A stretch of DNA of 64,000 bases, taken from Medakamo hakoo. Its lineage: Eukaryota; Chlorophyta; Trebouxiophyceae; Coccomyxaceae. This document shows positions 5,026 through 64,000 of the stretch, in pieces. A program made the translations under genes and the position numbers. Numbering within the stretch: the first letter of the stretch is position 1; each line of letters starts with the position of its first letter. The notes beneath the pieces were generated by a model that made no database searches, had not been told where the DNA came from, and saw only the letters and a program-made list of their open reading frames with translations. The stretch is taken from assembly GCA_026636295.1 (NCBI GenBank), contig CP089459.1:744001-808000 (forward strand). Reading direction: 5' to 3'.

Positions 5026-7329
5026 TCAATCCTCTTCATCCCCGGCCGGCTCCACGCGGATCAGGTCGTCGATGCGCAGGATCGTGATCGCCGCCTCCGT
5101 CGCAAACCGCAAAATCGCCACCTTGGCCGCGGACGGCTCCAGGACGCCGGCGGCGACGTTGTCGCGCACGCCCGCACCCGGCCCGCTCCCCGGCCGCGCG
5201 CCCGGGTCGGACAGGTCCAGGCCGGTGCGCGCCCGGCCCGCCGCGCCCTTTGACGTGGACGCGTCTTCACCATCCGCCGCCGCGGCCTGCGCCGCGTAGT
5301 GGTGCGCGCGCAGCTTGGCGACCGCGTCGGCCGCGTCGCGCGCCGCGTTGACGGCCAGCGCCTTGGGCACTGCCAGCACCGCGTCCGCAAACTCGGCGAT
5401 GGCCAGCTGTTCGCGGGAGCCCAGCGTGGCGGCGTACCCCTCCAGGGCCACGGACACGGCGGCTTCGGCCGCGCCGCCGCCCGGGACGACGGACCCCGAC
5501 TCCAGCACCCGGCGCACCGCGCACAGCGCGTCGTGCACGGCGCGCTCCATTTCGTCGAGGAGGAAGTCGTTGGCGCCGCGCAGGAGGATGGTCGCGCCGC
5601 CGGACGGGGTGGGGCCGGTGGAGGTGGCCAGGCTGGCGGCGTCGGCCGTGGAGGCGGCGTCGCCGTCGGCGGGCGGGGCGGCAGCGCCACCGCCGGGCGC
5701 GGCGCCGGCGCCGGCGCCCCCACCCCCGCCACCACCGCGCACGACCAGCACGTCGTCGCCCGCAATGCACTCCTCCACGACTTCGACCGCGGTCCCCAAA
5801 CACGCCGCGTCAAAGCCTTCGCCCGCCTCCTCATCCGCCAGGGACGTCACCAGCGTCGCGCCCGTCGCCCGGGCCACGCGCCGCAAGTCGTCTTTGGGCA
5901 CGCGGCGGACGGCCACGGCGCCGGCCTCGACAAAGTACTTGAGGCACAGGTCGTCGATGCCCTTGGTCGTCAGGACGACGTTGGCGCCGGCGTCCAGAAT
6001 GGCTTGGACGCGTTCGCGGGCGATGTCGGCTTCCCGCGCGCGGATGGCGGCGAGCTCCGCCGGGTCGGAGACGAGGACCTGGACGCCCAGGTGCAGGCGC
6101 GCTTTCTGCAGGTTGAAGTCGATGCACGCCACCCGCGCGGGCGACACGCGCGTCGGCATGCCCGCCGCCGCTTTGCCCATGTTGAGCGCGACGCCACGGA
6201 TCAAACGGGAGTCGGCCATGGAGCCGCCGGGCGCCTTCAAGATGGCGACGCCCTTGATGGGGTAGCGCGCGGGCGCGCCCGGCACCAGGCCGGGCTGCTT
6301 GACGGCCAGGACCGCGTCCACGACCAGGCGCGCGAAGTGGTCCGGGTCGGAGCCGATGACTTTGGAGGCCATGGACGTGCGGGCGACGGCGGCGAGCGTG
6401 TCCGGGCCCAGCTCCGAGACGGGGATGGCGAGGCGGTCGGTGATGAAGCGGGTGGCCTGGGGTGGGGGTGGTTGGAGTGTTTTTTTTTGGGGGGGGGGGG
6501 GGGGGGGGGGTCGTCAGGAAGCAGAGCGTGTGAAGGTGCGGCACCAAGTGCCACACGGTTGTGCGTGCACTCCTGCCCCTGGCAAGCAAAACAAAAAAAA
6601 GAGAGAGAACACCACCGCGCACCTCCCGCATGGCCAGCCGGTACCCGGCAATGACGCTCGTGGGGTGGACCTTGTGCCGCACCAGCTCCGCCGCCCGGCG
6701 CAGCAGCTCGGCCGCCACGATGACGACGGACGTGGTGCCGTCGCCGACTTCCTCGTCCTGGAGTTCGGCCAGGTCGACCAGGATCTGTTGCGTGGGGGTT
6801 GAGTGTGCGCGCCGTGAGTGACATGGGACGGGAGCAGGGGGAGAGGGGAGGTCGGGCGGGCGCGCACCCGTTGCTCTTCCGCCGCACGAATGGCGCCGCG
6901 CACCTTGGCCGCCGGGTGCTCCACCTCCAGCAGCTTCAGGATGGTGGCCCCATCGTTGGTGATGGTCACGTCCCCGATATCGTCGACGAGCATCTGATGC
7001 GTGGGTGAACGAGGCGGTTTTGTGAGCGCGGCGGGCGGGAGAAGGAGGAGACGCAAGCAGGGCCGATCGCTAGGCGAAAACTCCAATGCCTGGACGAAAG
7101 AAGACGCCCCGCCGCGGAGGAGAAAAAGGCGGCCGCCCGCGCTCCCGTCATCCCTGGCCCAACCCTGAGCGTGGCCGCCTCCCAGGCAACGCCTCACCTT
7201 GTCCAGGCCGACGGGCCCCAGACTCGATTTCACGATGTTTGCGAGCGCGGCCACGGCCGTCACGTTTTGGGTGCGGACGTCCGCGCCCGTGGTGCGCTCG
7301 CCCTGGACCAGGGACTGGAGGGCGGCCAT
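5026..7329 (-). CDS. CCT1: TCP-1/CCT chaperonin subunit alpha
   Basis: Exons, in gene order: 7329-7198, 6993-6904, 6784-6623 and 6456-5026, about 604 residues (family about 545). CCT1 is one of eight subunits of the cytosolic chaperonin that folds actin, tubulin and other proteins. Seen: SLGPVGLDK, the nucleotide loop NDGATILKLL, GDGTTS, the alpha-specific stretch HPTSVIAGYRLAMRE, GGTTILLRGAND-like hinge sequence (ILLRGANDF), and ATEAAITILRIDDLI at the end. All joins are phase 0. Extra length is mostly a Gly/Ala-rich insert of about 50 residues just before the conserved ILLRGAND strand. Intron 3 (6457-6622) contains a 22-base C-run on the coding strand. Shares a 313-bp divergent promoter with the flippase gene; its 3' end converges on RPT5. 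Confidence 0.95.
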
Positions 7330-7642: not shown

Positions 7643-10600
7643 ATGGGCGGTGGCGACGAAACCGCACCATCGGCGTCGTCTCCCTCGCCGGGACGGCCCC
7701 CCCTCCGGCCGGGAGAGCCTGACCCATCCTCGTCCAGTACCCCACGCCGTGCCCGCCCCGACTGGGCAACGCCCGGCCGGTCGCCCGGTTCGGACAGCGG
7801 GTCGCGCAACACTGGAGCGGCGGCGCGCTCGTCGCGCTCGGGCCGCGGCGCCGCGGGCGCGTCGCCCACCTCCTCCTCCGCCACGTCCGCGTCGGTCATG
7901 GACCGGGTGTCGGAGCAGTGGCGCAAAGCGACTGCCACCCTGGTGAGTGAGGCGTGCATGGAGTGGGGAGAGGCCTTTCCTTTTTTCATTGCTCGCGGCG
8001 CGGCGCGGCGCTCCCCCCCCCTCCCCCGTCTCGGCGCTGCTCCCCTCGTGCCTGGATGGGGACGGGACGGCCGAAGCTCACGCCCCCCTCCCACGCCCTC
8101 AACACACCAGGCCGCCACCCCCGCCGCCCTGCGCAAGTCGGCCAGCGACCTCAAAGCCCTGGTCGCGGGGCCGGGCGACGCGTCGGCCTCCGGGCGGCGG
8201 GACGCCAACCCCATCGCGCTCGCCGCGGCCGCGGCCGCCCGGATGCGGCGCCAGACGCTGACGGCGGAGGAGGTGGAAGCCATCATGGGCGTGGCGGGTG
8301 GGGGCGGTGGCGGTGGAGACGGCGGCGGTGGCGGGGCTGGTGGGCCGCCGCCGCCGCCCGCGCCGGGGAAAAAGCTGCGCCGGCGGCCGCGCGGCGGGTC
8401 GGGCCGCGCCGGCCACGGCCACGGCCCGCCGCCCTCGCGCGTCGTCCTCCTCGGCCCGGGCGCCCGGCTGCCGCCCGCCGTCTCCAACGCGGTGCGAACG
8501 GCCAAGTACAACCCCGTCACCTTCCTGCCCCGCTTCCTGTTCGAGATGTTCTCCCGGGCGGCGTACCTGTACTTCCTGCTCCAGGCCATCCTGTCCTGGA
8601 TCTCCGTCGTGTCGCCATTTGGCGGGACGGGGTCGACGCTCGCGCTGGCCTTCGTCCTGGCCGTCGCCGCGGTCAAGGCCCTGGTCGAAGACGCCAAGCG
8701 CCACGCCCAGGACCGGGCCACCAACGCGTCCGTGGCGCACTTGGTCGAACCGGACGGCAGCGTGCGCGACATCCCGTGGCGGGACGTGCGGGTCGGACAG
8801 GTGAGGGTGGCGCGGCGGGACTGGGGGGTGGGGGGCGGGGGTGGGTGGTGCGGGTGTGGGGGGCCGCCGCCTTGCCCGCCTGTCCCCGCCTGTCTCTCAG
8901 AGCGCCACGCCCCACCTCCCAACCGCAGATCCTGCGCGTCAACGACGACGAGCTCTTCCCCGCCGACCTGGCCTGCCTCTATTCCGGCCTGCACGACAAC
9001 GTGTGCTTCATCAAGACCACCAACCTGGATGGAGAGAACAACCTCAAAATCCGGCGCCCGGTCGACTTGCGGGACGACGCGCCCGCGTCCGAAGCGGAGG
9101 CGCTGGGCCTGGCCGGCGTCCTGACGTACGAGGCGCCGTGCGCCAACCTGCACCACTTCAAGGGGCGCCTGCGCCTGGACGGCACGCTGGCCGCGCCGCC
9201 CCCACCACCTCCGCGACTGGCCGGCTCGCCCGGCGGCGCGTCGGCCGCCGACGACGCCCTGTCCGCCTCCATCCCGGCCACGCCCGCCGCGGCCGCTGCC
9301 GCCGCCGCCGCCGCGCCGACGCCCGCCTCCCGCACCGTGCCCGTGACGATCAACGAGGTCCTGTTGCGCGGGTGCCTGCTGAAAAACACGGGCCACATTT
9401 TGGGTGTCGTCCTCTACACCGGCCCCGAAACGCGCATCCAGCAAAACGCGGCCGCGACGCCCAGCAAGATGGGTTCCTTCGACGCCTTCCTCAACTTCCA
9501 GATCGCCTTTGTCATGGCGCTCCAGCTGGCCATGTGCGTGGGCTGTGCGGCCGCGGGCGCGGCGTGGCGGTCCACGCGCGGCGCGGCGCGCCCGCACCTG
9601 GCGTTTGGCTCGCCCACGGAAGGCAACCCGGCCTCCCCGCTCGCGTACTTCGGCATCCTCCTCGTCACCTACTGGATCCTGTACTCGTACCTGGTGCCCA
9701 TCTCCCTCTTCGTCACCCTGGAAATCGTCAAGTTCTGGCAAGGGTTCCTGTACATCAACTGGGATGAGGAGATGGTCGACCCGGGCACGGGCGACGGCGC
9801 GCTCGCGCGCAACACGGGCTTGAACGAGGACCTGGGCAAGGTCGAGTACGTGTTTTCGGACAAGACCGGCACGCTGACGGCCAATGAGATGGCGGTGCGG
9901 TGCGTGGCGGCGGGCGGGCGCACGTACGGCGACCCGGCGTTCCGCATCGAGGACTGGGGCGAGGCGGCGGCGACAGTAGGCGGCGGCGATGGGGGCGAGG
10001 GTGAAGGCGTGCCCCACGCCCCGCGCTCGCCCGCCACCCTGCCCGACCCGGCCGCCTGCGCCAGGGCCTGGGACGCGGGCGCGGCTGCTGGCATCGCTGC
10101 CCTGACGGCCCGGCGCGACGAGTGGGCGGCCCTGGTCCGCGGCGGCGGGTCCAAAGCGCCCGGCGGTGGTGGCGGCGGCGGCGGCGGCGGGCGCGGGCCA
10201 CGCTCGCCGCGCCCGTCGTCGCGCGACGGCGGCGGCAGCGGCCCGTCTTCCGCCTCCGACCCGGTCGCTGTCGGCACGGCCCTGGCCGACCTGTGGGTTG
10301 CTGTGTGCGTGTGCCACTCCCTGATCGTGGAACACCCGGAGGACGGCGACGACGAGGGTGTGGGCGGTGGCAAGGGCGCGAGCGCGCCCACCACGCCCGC
10401 GCGCGCCGCCCCTGCCACCCCTCGCTCCCCGCCGCGCTCGCCCCGCTCCCCGCGTTCCCTGCCACCCCTCCCCACTACACCGGGCGTCTACCAGGGCCCC
10501 TCCCCCGACGAAGTCGCCCTGGTGGAAGCCGCGCGCGCGCTGGGCTATGAATTCGTCGGCCGGTGCGCGGGTGGCGTCCGGCTCAACCTGCAGGGCGTCG

Positions 10601-12812: not shown

Positions 12813-15123
12813 CTACGCGGGCGGCGGCGGTGGCGGCGACGTCCCGTCGGCGGCCGCGCGCGCGGCCGCGGCCGCCGCGCCGCCGCGGGTCAAGCGGCCG
12901 CGGGCCGTCATGCCTACTGGCGGCGGCGGCGGCGCGCCGCCCATCAGCCCGCCTCCATTGGCTGGCCCGGGCGGTGAGATGCCCGCCGTGAAGAGCAGCG
13001 TGCCGGGCGAGGGCCCAGGCGGCGGCGGCGCGGGCGGGGTGGGGAGGCCGCCGCCAGGCCGACCACCACCAAAACCACTCCCACCACCGCTCCCGCCGCC
13101 CGCGCGAGGGCTGGCCGGGTGCCGCGTCGGGTGGGCGTGCGGGTGGTGGGGCCCGCCCTGTGGGTGGTGAAGCGGTGACATGGCGGGCGACACCGGCGGC
13201 GAGGACGGCGGCCAGGCGGCGGCGGCGGCGGCGGCGCCGGCCGCCCCTTCACCTGTGGCCCACCCCGCCACGCGCCGCCGGGTCGCGGGCCGCGAATCGG
13301 CGTCGTCGCCCAACTCCACGGCCGCCGCGGCGGCGTGGGCGGCCGCAGCAGCCGCGCCGCTGACCGTGCCAGCGAACGAGCCGCTGCGCACGCGCTCCAC
13401 GCCGCCGCCGTCGAGGAGGGAGCAGCCGCCGCCGGTGGACACGCCCCCCCCGCCCGCGCTGCCCACCCCCCACTCATCGTCCGAGCCCGCGGCGCCAAAG
13501 CCCGGCGGCACGTCCTCGTCGGAGTCGGGCGCGTCATCCAGTTCGTAGTAGGGGGCCGGCCGCGCCGGGCGCGGCGCCGCCGCGTACTGGACAAAGGCCG
13601 GGTCGGCCCAGGAGGGCGACGACAGGACGGCGACGGCGCCCAGGTTCGCGTACCGCGGCTCGGCCGCGGGCGCGAACATGGGGTAGTCGGGCGCAGAGAA
13701 CACGGTGGCCAGCCGCCCGGCCGGGCCGTCGTGGTCGATGGCGTACCCGCCCAGCACGCCGGCCATGCCGTCCGCTGCCCGCCCGTCCCGGGCGTCCGGG
13801 CCTTCGTGCGAGCGCAGGATGAGGCGCAGGCCGGAGGCGGCCAGGAATTGGTCGGTGACGTCCGGGCCAAAGGTGAGGCCGACGCCCCGCCCCTCATTCG
13901 GCGCCAGCCCGGGTTCGGCCGCCGGGTCGGACCACAGCACGTCGGCGGCCAAGGCGGACGTGCCGCGCCCGCTGGGGTCGACGCCGCCCTTGGACGCGGC
14001 GCGCAGGTGGGCGAGCGAGCCCAACGACACGGGGCCTGCCCCGGGCGCGCGGCGGGCGGGGCCCTTGCGCCGCCGTTTCGCGCCTCCCGGCCCCAGCCCG
14101 GGCGGCGGCGGCAGCGGCGACGGCGGCGCCCGCCACAGGCCGCCGTGACAGACGAGCGTGGCACGCCCGACGACGGCGGCGAGGGGCAGGCCCGCAAAGG
14201 CGCGGGTGCAGGCCCGCCACACGGCCCGCCCGCCCGCGGGCCCGTACTTGGCCAGCAGCTCGCCCAGGAAGCCGTACACAGTCGTGCACGCCACGGACTC
14301 GTGGTTGCCGCGCAGGAGGACCACGTGGTCCGGCGCGGCCAGCCGCCAGGCGGTGAGCAGGAGGAGCGTCTCCAGGCCCCAGGCGCCCCGGTCCACAAAG
14401 TCGCCGTTGAAAACGTACACGTTGCGCGGCCCCGGCGGGCCCATGATGCGCAGCATGTGCGCGACGTCCTGGACGTGGCCGTGCGTGTCGCCGACGACGA
14501 CGACCCGGGCGCGGGGGTGGGGGTCGACCTGTGTTTTTTTTTTTGTGCGTGTGTGTGCGGGTCGTCATGCGTGTGCCGAGTGAAAAAACGCCCCCCTCCT
14601 CATGAGGGCCGCCCACACGCAAAAAAAAACCAAAAGCCACCGCATCCCCAAAACGCACGTCCACGACCGTCGGCTGGGCCTTGACGGCGTCGCCTAGGGC
14701 ATCAACCATGGCCATGGCCACAGACGAAGGCACGATGGACGGCAGCGCCTCCGGATCCAGCCAGGACGCGGCTTCCAGCGACGCGGCGGTCGCGGCCGCC
14801 CAGGCGCGCGTGGCCGTGACGCGGGCGGGCAGGCCAGACGTGAAGGCGACGGGCGGCGGGAGCGGCGGGCCGGTCGCCGGCTGCGATGGAGGCTGGGGAG
14901 CGGGCGCGGTGCCTCCGCCTCCGCCGGTGGCAGGGCCCGATTTACCCCCACCACCTCCGCCGCCGGTTTTGGCGGACGCCCGAGGGGAGGCGGGCGTGGC
15001 GGCCGGCGGGCCGGCGCCGGCGGCGAGTGCCGCGAATGGAGGCGACGCGGGCGCGGCGGACGCGCCGCCGGACGCGGCGGCCGCGGCGGCGGCCCGGCCG
15101 CGTGGGGACCGGGGGCCAGTCAT
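12813..15123 (-). CDS. PP7: PPP-family Ser/Thr phosphatase, plant PP7 type
   Basis: Exons 15123-14641 and 14528-12813 give about 732 residues. PPP metal ligands are all present: GDTHG, GDFVDRG, GNHE, and the later histidines (CHGGL, RSHEG). The stretch GDFVDRGAWGLETLLLL is characteristic of PP7, a plant nuclear phosphatase linked to light and stress signalling, rather than PP1/PP2A/PP5. The catalytic part is interrupted by low-complexity inserts, and about 250 Gly/Ala/Pro-rich residues follow it, so the protein is much longer than the roughly 413-residue Arabidopsis PP7. The intron (14529-14640) begins GTGGCT and is full of T and A runs on the coding strand. The start ATG is the first in an open stretch and lies in a divergent spacer with TOM7. 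Confidence 0.85.
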
Positions 15124-60993: not shown

Positions 60994-62526
60994 ATGGAGG
61001 GCCTGAGCCGGGAGGAGATTGAACGGTGCGCGCGTGTTGTGTGTGGGGGGCGCGGACAGGCAGGCGCGAGGGTGGTGAGGCCGTGCGCACGACGTCCCAC
61101 GGCCCCCTCCTGCGCCTGCCGCCCATCTGTCCTGGGTCTCTGGGATGCCGCGGACGGTCCGCGATTGGGCTGGGCGCCGTGAGGCGCCGTTTGCCGTGCG
61201 TCAGCAGCGGCCGTGGCAGGGCGGGCACCGATGCCGCGGGCCCCAAGGAGCGAGAAACGCCGCCGCCGGCCGCGCTTGCCATGGCCGGCACTGCTGTTTT
61301 TCTTGTGCGCGTGCTGCTTTGAGCCACGCCCGTTCCGCTGGCATGGAGCGGACGAATGCGCGCGCGGTCCCAGGGGTCGCGGCCGCCGAGGGCGAGAGGT
61401 GGCGATGGGAAAACACCGCGGTGCTCTTTTTTTGCTTGCACGCGCAGGAAGACAAGGGAACGCCTGCGCCCGCGGCCATCCACTCACACAGCCGATGGGA
61501 GTGGCGTCCGTCTCGCCCAGCGGGCGTGGCGGCTTGGCGCGTTTAGGGTTGTACGGTGGATGGAAACGATTGGGCAGCAGTCTCCACTCGGCCTCCACTC
61601 CACTCACTCCCCACCCGTTCCGCCCCCCCACACACCACTCACAGGCTCATGTTTTTCGAGCAGGCCCGCGAGCACGCGGAGCGGGACTGCGAGAAAAACC
61701 CGCAGGACACGCAGGTAGGCTTCAAGAGGGAGGCGGGTGGTGGGTTGGGCGTTGGGCTTTCCGTGCCCGCCCTCACCCCTCACCCATCCATCCACTCGCA
61801 CACTCGCCCTCACGCCCGCCCTCCCCACTCCCCACCTCCACACACCACCCCGCCCGCGCGCAGGCCCTGACCCGGTGGGGCGGCGCCCTGTTGGAGCTGG
61901 CCCACTTTTGCCAGGGTGGCGAGGCGTATGAGAAGATCCAGGACGTGCGTGACGACGATTATTGATTGGAGAGAGAGGAGGGGGTGAGGGTGTGGTGGCC
62001 GCGCGCGGCGCTCACGGCTCACCTCCCCCCCCACACCCACACACCCCGCACACACCCCCAGGCCATCTCCAAGTTTGACGCCGCCCTGGCCATCGACCCC
62101 GCCAAGCACGACGCCCTGTGGTGCTTGGGCAACGCCTACACCTCGCAAGGCTTCCTGACGGCGGACGGCGACGCGGCGGGCGCCCTCTTTGCGCGCGCGG
62201 CGGGCTGCTTCGAGCGGGCGGTGGAGGCCGACCCCACGAGCGAGGTGTACAAGAAAGCCCTGGAAATGACGGCCAAGGCGCCGGCCCTGCACGCCGAGCT
62301 GCAGAAGCAGCTGGCCGCGTCCGCGGCGGCGGGCGGCGGGGGGATGATGGGCGGCGGCGGCGGCGGCGGCGGCGGCGGCCCGCGCGGTGGCGGCGGCGGC
62401 GGCGGCCGCGGCGGCGGCGGCCAGGCCGACGCGTCGTCCGAGTTTTGGTTTGACGTGGCGGGCTGGGTCGTCCTGGCGGCCGTCGTGGCGGGGATTGCGT
62501 TTGCCGCGCACAAAGGGGCAAAGTGA
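60994..62526 (+). CDS. TOM20: Mitochondrial import receptor TOM20, plant type
   Basis: Exons 60994-61025, 61645-61714, 61864-61944 and 62062-62526 give about 215 residues. Plant TOM20 is a tail-anchored presequence receptor unrelated by topology to animal TOM20. Blocks: LMFFEQAREHAERDCEKNPQ, ALTRWGGALLELAHFCQG, AISKFDAALAIDPAKHDALW, CLGNAYTSQGFLT and the TPR-like FERAVEADPTSEVYKKALEM with TAKAPALHAELQKQ. The C-terminus after a Gly-run has the anchor FWFDVAGWVVLAAVVAGIAF followed by a short Lys tail. The three introns join in phases 2, 0 and 0 at positions that reproduce plant TOM20. Intron 1 is 619 nt and contains a perfect small hairpin (CGCGGAC/GTCCGCG). The presence of this receptor supports Viridiplantae origin. 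Confidence 0.94.
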
Positions 62527-63031
62527 AGGGAGGGAAGGGGGTGGGGTGGGGTGGGGGGTCGGCCCTGCGCGCTCTGTCAAAACCACAAACTTTTTCGAGT
62601 GGGGGGTAGCACCATGCTGCTCGTCTGTCCTTGTCTGGTCTGGGTGTGGCGTGCTGGCGGCCGCCGGGGGAAATGGCATGGACGCTGCGCTGGAGGGGCA
62701 GGGGAGGGAGGGAGGGAGGGGGGTAGTGTGGGGGGATGTGATGGCTTTTTCGCGCGCGCGCGAAAAAGCCATCACATCCAGCCTCGGGCCGCCATTCAAC
62801 GACCTCCCTTGTCTCCCTGCTCCATGCGCCATCCTTGGCACGTATCTTCGGCACCCATTGAGGTGGCGGGCGGACGGCAAGGGCCACTGGCCAGCCCGGC
62901 CGCCGCCCACAACCGCCGTCGGTTTGGACACTGACCCGGGCAGGCTGCTTGATATGTTCCCTGAAATACATGTTTCATCAACAAGCAAAGCAATTCGAAT
63001 CGAGAAATCGTTAGAAGCGAACGCTTCAAGC
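62527..63031. other. Spacer TOM20 to tRNA-Gly
   Basis: 505 bp with no protein frame I can support. It contains GGGA-rich sequence, the 46-bp palindrome (separate entry), and from about 62951 an unusually AT-rich 80-bp segment directly 5' of the tRNA with CAACAAGCAAAGCAA, like the CAA start motifs of plant tRNA genes, and a small perfect hairpin at 63014-63027. Confidence 0.65.
62734..62779. repeat. Perfect 46-bp palindrome with a (CG)6 centre
   Basis: Arms 62734-62750 (GGATGTGATGGCTTTTT) and 62763-62779 are exact reverse complements; the 12 bases between them are alternating CG and self-complementary. There is no spacer, so the whole element is one perfect palindrome. It lies in non-coding DNA 253 bp before the tRNA. 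Confidence 0.97.
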
Positions 63032-63272
63032 GGGCAATTGGTATAGTGGTAGCACAGGGCCTTGCCATCTTCTGGACGGAAGGAAGAGAGGCGAGGGTCG
63101 TGAAAGTTGGTCCAAGTTGTGGTGGTGGCAGGTTCAATCCCAGCCAAAACCCCTCCCAAACCTTCTCCCACTTCCCCCGCCTCACGCCCACCCGTCCGAA
63201 ATAGCGAGAACGCGCTCTATCAATCGATAGCGCAAGCCGGCCCAGACCCGGGTTCGATTCCCGGATTGCTCA
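63032..63272 (+). tRNA. tRNA-Gly (GCC anticodon) with a 170-nt intron
   Basis: The 5' half is 63032-63067 and the 3' half 63238-63272. The acceptor stem GGGCAAT pairs with ATTGCTC (one G-U), the discriminator is A, and the T arm CCGGG-TTCGATT-CCCGG is perfect with the usual AGAC variable loop. The anticodon stem GGGCC pairs with GGCCC, giving loop TT-GCC-A-C and anticodon 63064-63066. The intron starts right after position 37, the standard nuclear site. The A box is TGGTATAGTGG, the B box GGTTCGATTCC. A T5 run (63281-63285) eight bases downstream is a good Pol III terminator. The intron is far longer than usual and contains a second B-box-like GGTTCAATCCC (63131-63141). An alternative 3' half around that internal T arm fails to pair with the acceptor. 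Confidence 0.8.
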
Positions 63273-63575
63273 CGAGCTTCTTTTTGGACGTTTCGGCGTT
63301 TTTGTTTTGGTGGCGGCGTCGGACGGCGGCGCGACCGCGGCGGCGGGGAGGGCGTGGCAGCGGGCGGCGGCCGCTCGGCCGCCCCCTCCCCCTCCCTCCG
63401 CCTCTCCCCTCGCGTCCGGACCCGCGCTGGATTGAGGGGCATGTTTTGCTCGATTGTCATGGTTTCTGAGGCATGAGACAGCGGGCGCCGCCGCCCCTGC
63501 CGCCCTCCCGCCCGCTGCCCGCCCCTCCTCCTCATCTGACATGTTCCAACGGAGGCAAGGCAGGACATTATTTTT
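63273..63575. other. Convergent spacer between tRNA-Gly and ERA
   Basis: 303 bp of GC-rich sequence after the T-run, running to the ERA stop codon. No gene or repeat is supported. Confidence 0.6.
63281..63285 (+). terminator. Pol III T-run terminator of tRNA-Gly
   Basis: TTTTT follows the discriminator base by eight nucleotides, the normal spacing for Pol III release. Confidence 0.7.
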
Positions 63576-64000
63576 TCAGTACCCCCACGCCTCCAACGCC
63601 TGCGCACTCCGCCTCCACCCGGGCGCCACCTTGACCGACACGTCCAGGTACACCGGCCGCCCGAGGAACAGCTCCACGTCCGCGCGCGCGGCCGCGCCCA
63701 GCCGCTTCAGCGCCGCCCCGCCCGACCCCAGCAGGATGGCGCGCTGCCGCGGGCGTTCGACCGCGATGGTGACGGCCACGTAATCCTTGGCGGGCGGGTC
63801 GCGCTCCGTGTACTCCGTCACCGCCACCGTCGCCGCGTACGGGACCTCGTCCCGGTACAGGGCCATGACCTTTTCCCGCACAATCTCCGCGACGAAGAAG
63901 CGGGTCGGCGCGCTCGACAGCAGGTGGCGCGGGTACAGGGACGGCCCCTCGGGCAGGTGGTCGGCCGCCCAGCCGGCGGCGGCGGCCACGCCCCGGCCGT
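63576..64000 (-). CDS. ERA: ERA-type GTPase, C-terminal KH domain (5' end outside window)
   Basis: The visible 141 residues are the C-terminal RNA-binding domain of Era, which binds the 3' end of small-subunit rRNA during ribosome maturation. Seen: ADHLPEGPSLYPRHLLSS, the strongly conserved RFFVAEIVREKVMALYRDEV, PYAATVAVTEYTER, AVERPRQRAILLGSGGAALK (KH GxxG loop), LGAAARADVELFLGRPVYLD and VKVAPGWRRS ending in LEAWGY. The GTPase domain lies beyond the window edge, so plastid versus mitochondrial form cannot be decided. Confidence 0.95.
   Translation of the reverse strand, partial: GRGVAAAAGWAADHLPEGPSLYPRHLLSSAPTRFFVAEIVREKVMALYRDEVPYAATVAVTEYTERDPPAKDYVAVTIAVERPRQRAILLGSGGAALKRLGAAARADVELFLGRPVYLDVSVKVAPGWRRSAQALEAWGY

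What the first reader, a model, noticed from the sequence alone, without database searches (positions are those of the whole stretch)
63032..63272. tRNA-Gly(GCC) with a 170-nt intron that contains a second T-arm/B-box-like sequence
All tRNA stems, the anticodon loop, position-37 intron site, A and B boxes and a T-run terminator are present, but the intron is an order of magnitude longer than typical nuclear tRNA introns and pushes the two promoter boxes over 200 bp apart. Inside it, GGTTCAATCCC with partly paired flanks mimics a B box at a near-normal distance from the A box, and GGTCC before it could pair with the 5' anticodon stem. It may be a decoy that lets TFIIIC bind, a decayed second tRNA 3' half, or part of a nested gene. 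Directly 5' lie an AT-rich leader with CAA motifs and a perfect 6-bp hairpin.
Basis: partly seen in the sequence, partly recalled or inferred. Interest (0 to 1): 0.72.

Follow-up and report, generated by a model that had tools for sequence, protein, structure and literature searches.

The report
Long tRNA introns carrying promoter boxes
In the tiny green alga that this sequence appears to come from, a glycine tRNA gene and other tRNA genes are split by unusually long introns, and many of the long introns contain a spare copy of the promoter element that such introns push out of reach, which suggests how these genes stay switched on.

Summary
Its length is no local oddity: 27 of 35 nuclear tRNA genes that I compiled (an incomplete set) have introns, median 89 nt, longest 188. 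The embedded GGTTCAATCCC is a full B-box match and part of a pattern. Of 15 introns of 80 nt or more, 9 carry a strong sense-strand B box (0.29 expected from window background; combined shuffle p 4e-7; 1 antisense site; 0 of 12 shorter introns). Eight of the nine lie 48-80 bp from the A box, inside yeast's 31-93 range; the same genes' true B boxes lie 121-200 bp away. T-stem pairing is not kept there, so they look like DNA promoter elements, not tRNA relics. Best explanation: surrogate B boxes giving TFIIIC normal spacing. This is inferred: I had no RNA or binding data, and six of the 15 long introns lack a strong box. Two tRNA-Pro genes have D-loop introns with GT...AG ends.

The parts
62948..62969 (+). 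upstream promoter-like element (TATA-like plus GAAAT), here starting at -84
   Evidence: Motif search over 32 upstream regions: 27 of 32 score 10 bits or more, 22 of those 27 start at -35 to -60; Gly(GCC) scores 13.8. The motif was learned from the same regions and has no shuffled control.
63032..63067 (+). 5' exon of tRNA-Gly(GCC), anticodon 63064-63066
   Evidence: ARAGORN with introns; exon table
63039..63049 (+). A box TGGTATAGTGG
   Evidence: sequence; matches TRGYnnARBGG as quoted in PMC7279448
63068..63237 (+). 170-nt intron after position 37
   Evidence: precursor fold z = -2.97 with acceptor, anticodon and T stems kept
63131..63141 (+). intronic (surrogate) B box GGTTCAATCCC
   Evidence: score 17.1, p = 0.001 against dinucleotide shuffles; matches GGTTCRAnYCY as quoted in PMC7279448 at all 11 positions
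63062..63065 (+). TTGC of the anticodon loop, exon side of the 4-bp helix of the splice motif
   Evidence: pairs 4 of 4 with the intron's GCAA
63232..63238 (+). GCAA plus GC|C bulge at the 3' splice site
   Evidence: hBH motif
63238..63272 (+). 3' exon of tRNA-Gly(GCC)
63251..63261 (+). true (exonic) B box GGTTCGATTCC
   Evidence: 200 bp beyond the A box by the convention
63281..63285 (+). TTTTT, Pol III terminator-like
   Evidence: sequence

Best explanation
This is a genuine, apparently single-copy nuclear tRNA-Gly(GCC) gene. It is transcribed by RNA polymerase III and its 170-nt intron is removed by the ordinary tRNA splicing endonuclease and ligase route. The intron pushes the real B box 200 bp from the A box. 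A second B box inside the intron, 80 bp from the A box, lets TFIIIC contact A and B boxes at a normal distance, so the gene is still read efficiently; the exonic B box is kept because it encodes the T arm. The same arrangement recurs in other long tRNA introns of this alga. Shown here: the gene structure, the splice motif, and the enrichment, strand and position of the intronic boxes. Inferred: transcription, splicing, that TFIIIC binds the intronic boxes, and that they matter for expression.
For: Gene: stems, A and B boxes, terminator; one copy by DNA search and one Gly(GCC)-type 5' half by pattern, the only other hit being Gly(CCC). Splicing: positions 32-35 pair with intron -6 to -3 at 4 of 4 positions in Gly(GCC); over 25 genes with 37/38 introns the mean score is 2.74, against 1.16-1.44 in shifted registers and 1.87 (maximum 2.42 in 2000) with introns swapped between genes. 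Two tRNA_int_endo loci and one B-block TFIIIC match in a 1579-aa open frame. Intronic boxes: 9 of 15 introns of 80 nt or more score at least 7.5 on the sense strand, 1 site antisense, 0.29 expected from the window's rate; combined shuffle p 4.0e-7 sense, 0.43 antisense, 0.81 for the 12 short introns, 7.4e-5 for all 27; 1.4e-5 without Gly(GCC), n = 14. Position: 8 of 9 at a gap of 31-93 bp, the natural range in yeast (PMC4937561, passage); spread tighter than random placement, p = 0.0067. All 9 are among the 20 genes with an exonic gap over 93 bp, none among the 7 others. The two Pro introns lie in the D loop, not at 37/38, yet have the box at 57 and 63 bp. The T stem is not kept at the boxes.
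Against: Six of 15 long introns have no strong box, among them Ile(TAT) (188 nt) and Leu(TAA) (156 nt), so an internal box is not essential. The Asp site lies 111 bp out. Counting positions, the preference for the 31-93 window is marginal (8 hits in 1246 positions, 1 in 1000 outside, p = 0.049). Genes with and without an intronic box do not differ in exonic B-box strength (p = 0.24). 27 of 32 upstream regions have a TATA-like motif, which may make internal boxes less needed. PMC4090602 (passages) reports both early work in which introns changed expression and work showing that TFIIIC tolerates varied distance, and concludes that altered distance may have only minor effects in general. The 80-nt cut-off and the hypothesis came after I had read some of the introns. 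The 32/-3 pair forms in 23 of 25 genes but also in 18.2 on average when introns are swapped (maximum 22), so it is a weak sign by itself. The PF04182 search also rings in 8 of 14 prokaryote controls, 4 over cut-off. One genome, no relatives, no RNA or binding data.
Confidence: 0.6

Rival explanations
1. Ordinary long tRNA intron; the internal GGTTCAATCCC is a chance match without function, and TFIIIC simply spans the long distance, helped by the upstream TATA-like element.
For: 6 of 15 long introns lack a strong box; upstream motifs are general (27 of 32); TFIIIC tolerates variable spacing (PMC4090602 passages).
Against: Chance is a poor account of 9 of 15 introns with sense-strand sites against 0.29 expected and 1 antisense.
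Confidence: 0.2
2. The introns, or some of them, descend from Pol III-transcribed mobile elements (SINE-like) or tRNA-derived insertions, and the box is inherited from that ancestor, possibly then retained.
For: Glu(CTC) and Pro(CGG) introns share 74% over 47 nt spanning the box (E = 0.006); introns occur at two different tRNA positions.
Against: That match is marginal for an all-against-all comparison of the 24 introns of 30 nt or more, and the other matches there are weaker (E 0.04 to 0.32); matches of these introns to the 35 mature tRNAs are 10-16 nt long.
Confidence: 0.1
3. The intronic element acts in RNA: it mimics a T arm, for example for folding, modification or export of the precursor.
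For: In Gly(GCC) 4 of 5 T-stem pairs form (6 of 7 in a longer stem, by eye) and the predicted fold places the box in an apical hairpin.
Against: Pairing at the nine internal sites is 1-4 of 5, against 5 of 5 at the exonic boxes of the same genes.
Confidence: 0.06
4. Decayed second tRNA 3' half or nested non-coding gene.
For: Two low Rfam tRNA hits, 24.4 and 20.8 bits, in the Trp and Val(CAC) genes end at the intronic box, as if it were the T arm (extents).
Against: The Gly intron matches the 35 mature tRNAs over 11 nt only (E up to 0.3); no Rfam family reaches its cut-off in the window; in 20 loci searched directly the 5 hits over cut-off were all whole tRNAs; one run of four T in all 27 introns, in Ile(TAT).
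Confidence: 0.04

Closest known systems
Nuclear intron-containing tRNA genes with 37/38 introns (yeast, plants; splicing-endonuclease substrates)
   Same: Intron position, hBH-type splice motif, type 2 Pol III promoter, T-run terminator
   Different: 27 of 35 compiled genes have introns, median 89 nt, up to 188. In yeast about 25% of pre-tRNAs have introns (PMC4937561, passage); in flowering plants introns are mainly in Met and Tyr genes, with a 172-bp outlier in Miscanthus sinensis (PMC11700998, passages)
Additional functional B box in SINE B1 (Koval, Veniaminova and Kramerov 2011; seen only as a title in the reference list of PMC7279448)
   Same: By its title, a Pol III promoter with an extra B box
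   Different: Here the extra box lies inside a tRNA intron and recurs across several tRNA genes
Disrupted tRNA genes of small algae: permuted genes in Ostreococcus and Micromonas, atypical introns in Cyanidioschyzon (PMC3978253, passages)
   Same: Small algal genomes with rearranged or interrupted tRNA genes; the two Pro genes here have atypically placed introns
   Different: The Gly gene is not permuted; that review says green algae have almost no atypical introns, and the passages I saw mention no intronic B boxes

Membership tests
Nuclear intron-containing tRNA gene | complete cloverleaf after removal of one intron between 37 and 38 | tested here: met
Nuclear intron-containing tRNA gene | hBH splice motif | tested here: met
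   4 of 4 pairs in Gly(GCC)
Nuclear intron-containing tRNA gene | A box, B box and T-run terminator | tested here: met
Nuclear intron-containing tRNA gene | mature spliced tRNA present in the cell | not testable with these tools
   no RNA data held
Type 2 Pol III promoter with surrogate B box | B-box consensus match at a TFIIIC-compatible distance from the A box | tested here: met
   80 bp gap; all 11 positions of the consensus quoted in PMC7279448
Type 2 Pol III promoter with surrogate B box | TFIIIC binding and effect on transcription | not testable with these tools
   no binding or expression data
Permuted tRNA gene | 3' half encoded upstream of the 5' half | tested here: not met
   halves are in normal order
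Decayed tRNA in the intron | tRNA similarity beyond the B box | tested here: not met
   11-nt match only
Decayed tRNA in the intron | full T stem around the box | tested here: not met
   4 of 5 pairs in Gly(GCC), 1-4 of 5 over nine sites

The most novel reading that the evidence does not exclude
A nuclear tRNA gene set in which introns have grown so long that over half of the long ones carry their own B box, giving introns a promoter role, together with tRNA-Pro genes whose D-loop introns have GT...AG ends and may be removed by the spliceosome from Pol III transcripts.
Probability: 0.25. Interest if true: 0.85.

Novelty: new variant of a known kind. Interest (0 to 1): 0.63.

Why it matters
How far TFIIIC can stretch between A and B boxes, and what limits tRNA intron length, are old questions that I recall being studied mostly with engineered yeast genes. 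Here is a natural genome in which 20 of 27 compiled intron-bearing tRNA genes exceed the yeast A-B range, with an apparent evolved answer in 9 of them and not in the others, so the question becomes directly testable. It also shows how such genes are overlooked: the Rfam tRNA search of the genome put 14 of the 35 genes over cut-off (its first look is capped), and given 20 of the loci directly Rfam found 5.

Tried and rejected
The tRNA tool without introns and Rfam found nothing in the window. ARAGORN with long introns also called Leu, Arg and Ala genes in the window (5192-5397, 8733-9148, 14045-14227); I rejected them as GC-rich sequence with mismatched stems. Fetched candidates without a gene: L089, L090, L091, L094, L095, L098, and the pattern loci among L020-L080 for which ARAGORN printed no gene. 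The list was cut (139 matches counted, about 100 listed, loci for the first 30), and listed places without a locus were fetched only where I thought them tRNA-like. ARAGORN calls at L003 (Val gac) and L074 (Asp gtc) were dropped as implausible. For eight genes its anticodon was wrong and I reassigned it by hand from the stems (Val CAC at L017, Asp GTC L043, Glu CTC L061, Pro CGG L066, Arg ACG L081, Ser TGA L083, Gly TCC L085, Ser AGA L097); Pro AGG (L096) was not called and was read by hand.

My first Gly pattern was off by one base and would have missed canonical genes; one search is the corrected one. The 5' splice-site hexamer count in the window showed no clear excess of GTAAGT (2, expected 1.4) or GTGAGT (16, expected 12.4), so it does not help to decide how the Pro introns are removed. 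Genes with weak exonic B boxes are not the ones with intronic boxes. A possible second A box in the Gly intron (TGGTCCAAGTTG) was seen by eye and not pursued. The upstream motif search left out three of 35 genes whose fetched upstream DNA was too short (Ser AGA, Arg TCT, Asn GTT). Not found in my inventory: His, initiator Met, Lys(TTT), Gln(TTG), Leu(CAG), Glu(TTC), Val(TAC) and others, which does not mean that they are absent.

Full report
Where it is. The window is G000:C6:744001-808000 of a 15.64-Mb, 16-contig assembly. The longest contig seen (C1, 1,473,234 bp) and C6 (1,246,908 bp) equal the maximum and N50 given for Medakamo hakoo, a trebouxiophyte green alga with 16 non-organellar contigs and 72.7% GC (PMC9871001, passages). 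That paper says only that tRNAs for all 20 amino acids were found (Supplementary Table 2, not seen); its main text has no hit for 'intron', 'splicing' or 'tRNAscan'.

The gene. ARAGORN with introns allowed gives tRNA-Gly(gcc) with a 170-nt intron. Exons are 63032-63067 and 63238-63272. Its neighbours are a TOM20-like ORF ending at 62526 (+) and a KH-domain ORF at 63576-63998 (-). A whole-gene DNA search finds one copy. A corrected 5'-half pattern with up to 3 mismatches finds this gene (0 mismatches) and the separate Gly(CCC) gene (2 mismatches) and nothing else. Within that sensitivity it is single copy. Upstream lies the TATA-like plus AAAAAT motif that scores 10 bits or more in 27 of 32 tRNA upstream regions; it starts at -35 to -60 in 22 of those 27 and at -84 here. 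The motif was learned from the same regions, without a shuffled control.

Splicing. In the precursor fold the acceptor, anticodon and T stems form and the intron makes a long hairpin (-94.8 kcal/mol, z = -2.97, 0 of 200 shuffles as low). The hBH motif is complete: TTGC of positions 32-35 pairs with GCAA, followed by a GC|C bulge; only Ala(TGC) also reaches 4 of 4. Over 25 genes with 37/38 introns the mean score is 2.74 (17 of 25 at 3 or more), against 1.16-1.44 in four shifted registers and 1.87 (maximum 2.42) in 2000 swaps of introns between genes. The 32/-3 pair alone forms in 23 of 25, but in 18.2 on average after swapping (maximum 22), so it says less. The genome has two tRNA_int_endo loci and one B-block TFIIIC locus; the latter family also rings in 8 of 14 prokaryote controls, so the 1579-aa open frame is the better sign.

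The genome-wide picture. From Rfam, T-arm and A-box patterns and fetched stretches with ARAGORN and hand reading I compiled 35 tRNA genes; 27 have introns of 11 to 188 nt, median 89. The genes were found, or found again, through exon features, so intron content did not decide inclusion; the T-arm patterns do favour genes with consensus exonic B boxes. Two (Trp, Val CAC) were first seen as weak Rfam hits ending at the intronic box, but also by exonic patterns. The set is incomplete.

Intronic B boxes. A weight matrix from the 35 exonic B boxes was run over the 27 introns and over 1000 dinucleotide shuffles of each. Introns of 80 nt or more: p at most 0.05 in 8 of 15 on the sense strand and 0 of 15 antisense; Fisher 4.0e-7 and 0.43. 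Shorter introns: 0 of 12 sense, Fisher 0.81 (1 of 12 antisense, 0.48). All 27: 7.4e-5 sense, 0.46 antisense. Without Gly(GCC): 1.4e-5, n = 14. The nine introns with a site of at least 7.5 are Lys(CTT), Trp(CCA), Val(CAC), Asp(GTC), Glu(CTC), Gly(TCC), Gly(GCC), Pro(CGG) and Pro(AGG); Gly(TCC) has shuffle p = 0.053. At that threshold the window's own rate predicts 0.29, and the antisense strand of the same introns has 1. The window is more GC-rich than the introns, so the shuffles and the antisense strand are the fairer controls. The 80-nt cut was chosen after reading some introns.

Position and structure. The gap is counted from nt 8 of the tRNA to the first base of the 11-nt box, minus 12. 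Eight of the nine lie at 48-80, Asp at 111; the exonic boxes of the same nine genes lie at 121-200. Natural yeast A-B spacing is 31-93 (PMC4937561, passage). The spread is tighter than random placement in the introns (p = 0.0067), although counting positions inside and outside 31-93 gives only p = 0.049. None of the nine sites has a full T stem (1-4 of 5 pairs); the exonic sites of the 15 long-intron genes all have 5 of 5. Matches of the 24 introns of 30 nt or more to mature tRNAs are 10-16 nt long; for Gly(GCC) it is the 11-nt box alone.

Reading. The simplest account is a second B box kept or gained inside long introns so that TFIIIC sees a normal A-B distance. The strongest argument against necessity is that Leu(TAA), Ile(TAT), Ala(TGC), Val(AAC), Tyr(GTA) and Arg(TCT) lack a strong one. 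Upstream elements, or a TFIIIC that spans far, may serve those; Leu(TAA) has no clear upstream motif either.

Novelty. Searches of the paper library for intronic or second B boxes in tRNA genes and for long tRNA introns, and for tRNA introns in green algae and M. hakoo, listed no paper whose title, abstract start or passages that I saw describe this arrangement. One search returned nothing; one search listed one paper (PMC9858662), which I did not open. Most subscription papers are not in that library. A long single outlier is known in plants (172 bp, PMC11700998, passages).

Noticed in passing
L096 (G000:C5:850500-850900) and L066 (C5 near 861.7 kb): tRNA-Pro(AGG) and tRNA-Pro(CGG) have 129- and 155-nt introns in the D loop with GTAAGT...GCAG and GTGAGT...GCAG ends, each with a strong B box; possibly spliceosomal introns in Pol III genes. 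The exact junction is ambiguous by one base. No third Pro gene was found with up to 3 mismatches.
   Followed up: partly
L088 (G000:C11:51000-52200): tRNA-Leu(AAG) is followed by two partial tandem copies of its own 3' end, the first with its flank.
   Followed up: no
window 62734-62779: A perfect 46-bp palindrome (23-nt arms, no spacer) between the TOM20-like ORF and the tRNA gene.
   Followed up: partly
upstream of 32 tRNA genes: A common element, about TTTATATACCGCCAAAAATTC, at 10 bits or more in 27 of 32 regions.
   Followed up: partly
L061 and L066 introns: Glu(CTC) and Pro(CGG) introns share 74% over 47 nt including the box (E = 0.006), a hint of common origin.
   Followed up: no
all 27 introns: One run of four or more T on the sense strand (in Ile(TAT)) against six runs of A, in line with Pol III having to read through them.
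   Followed up: no
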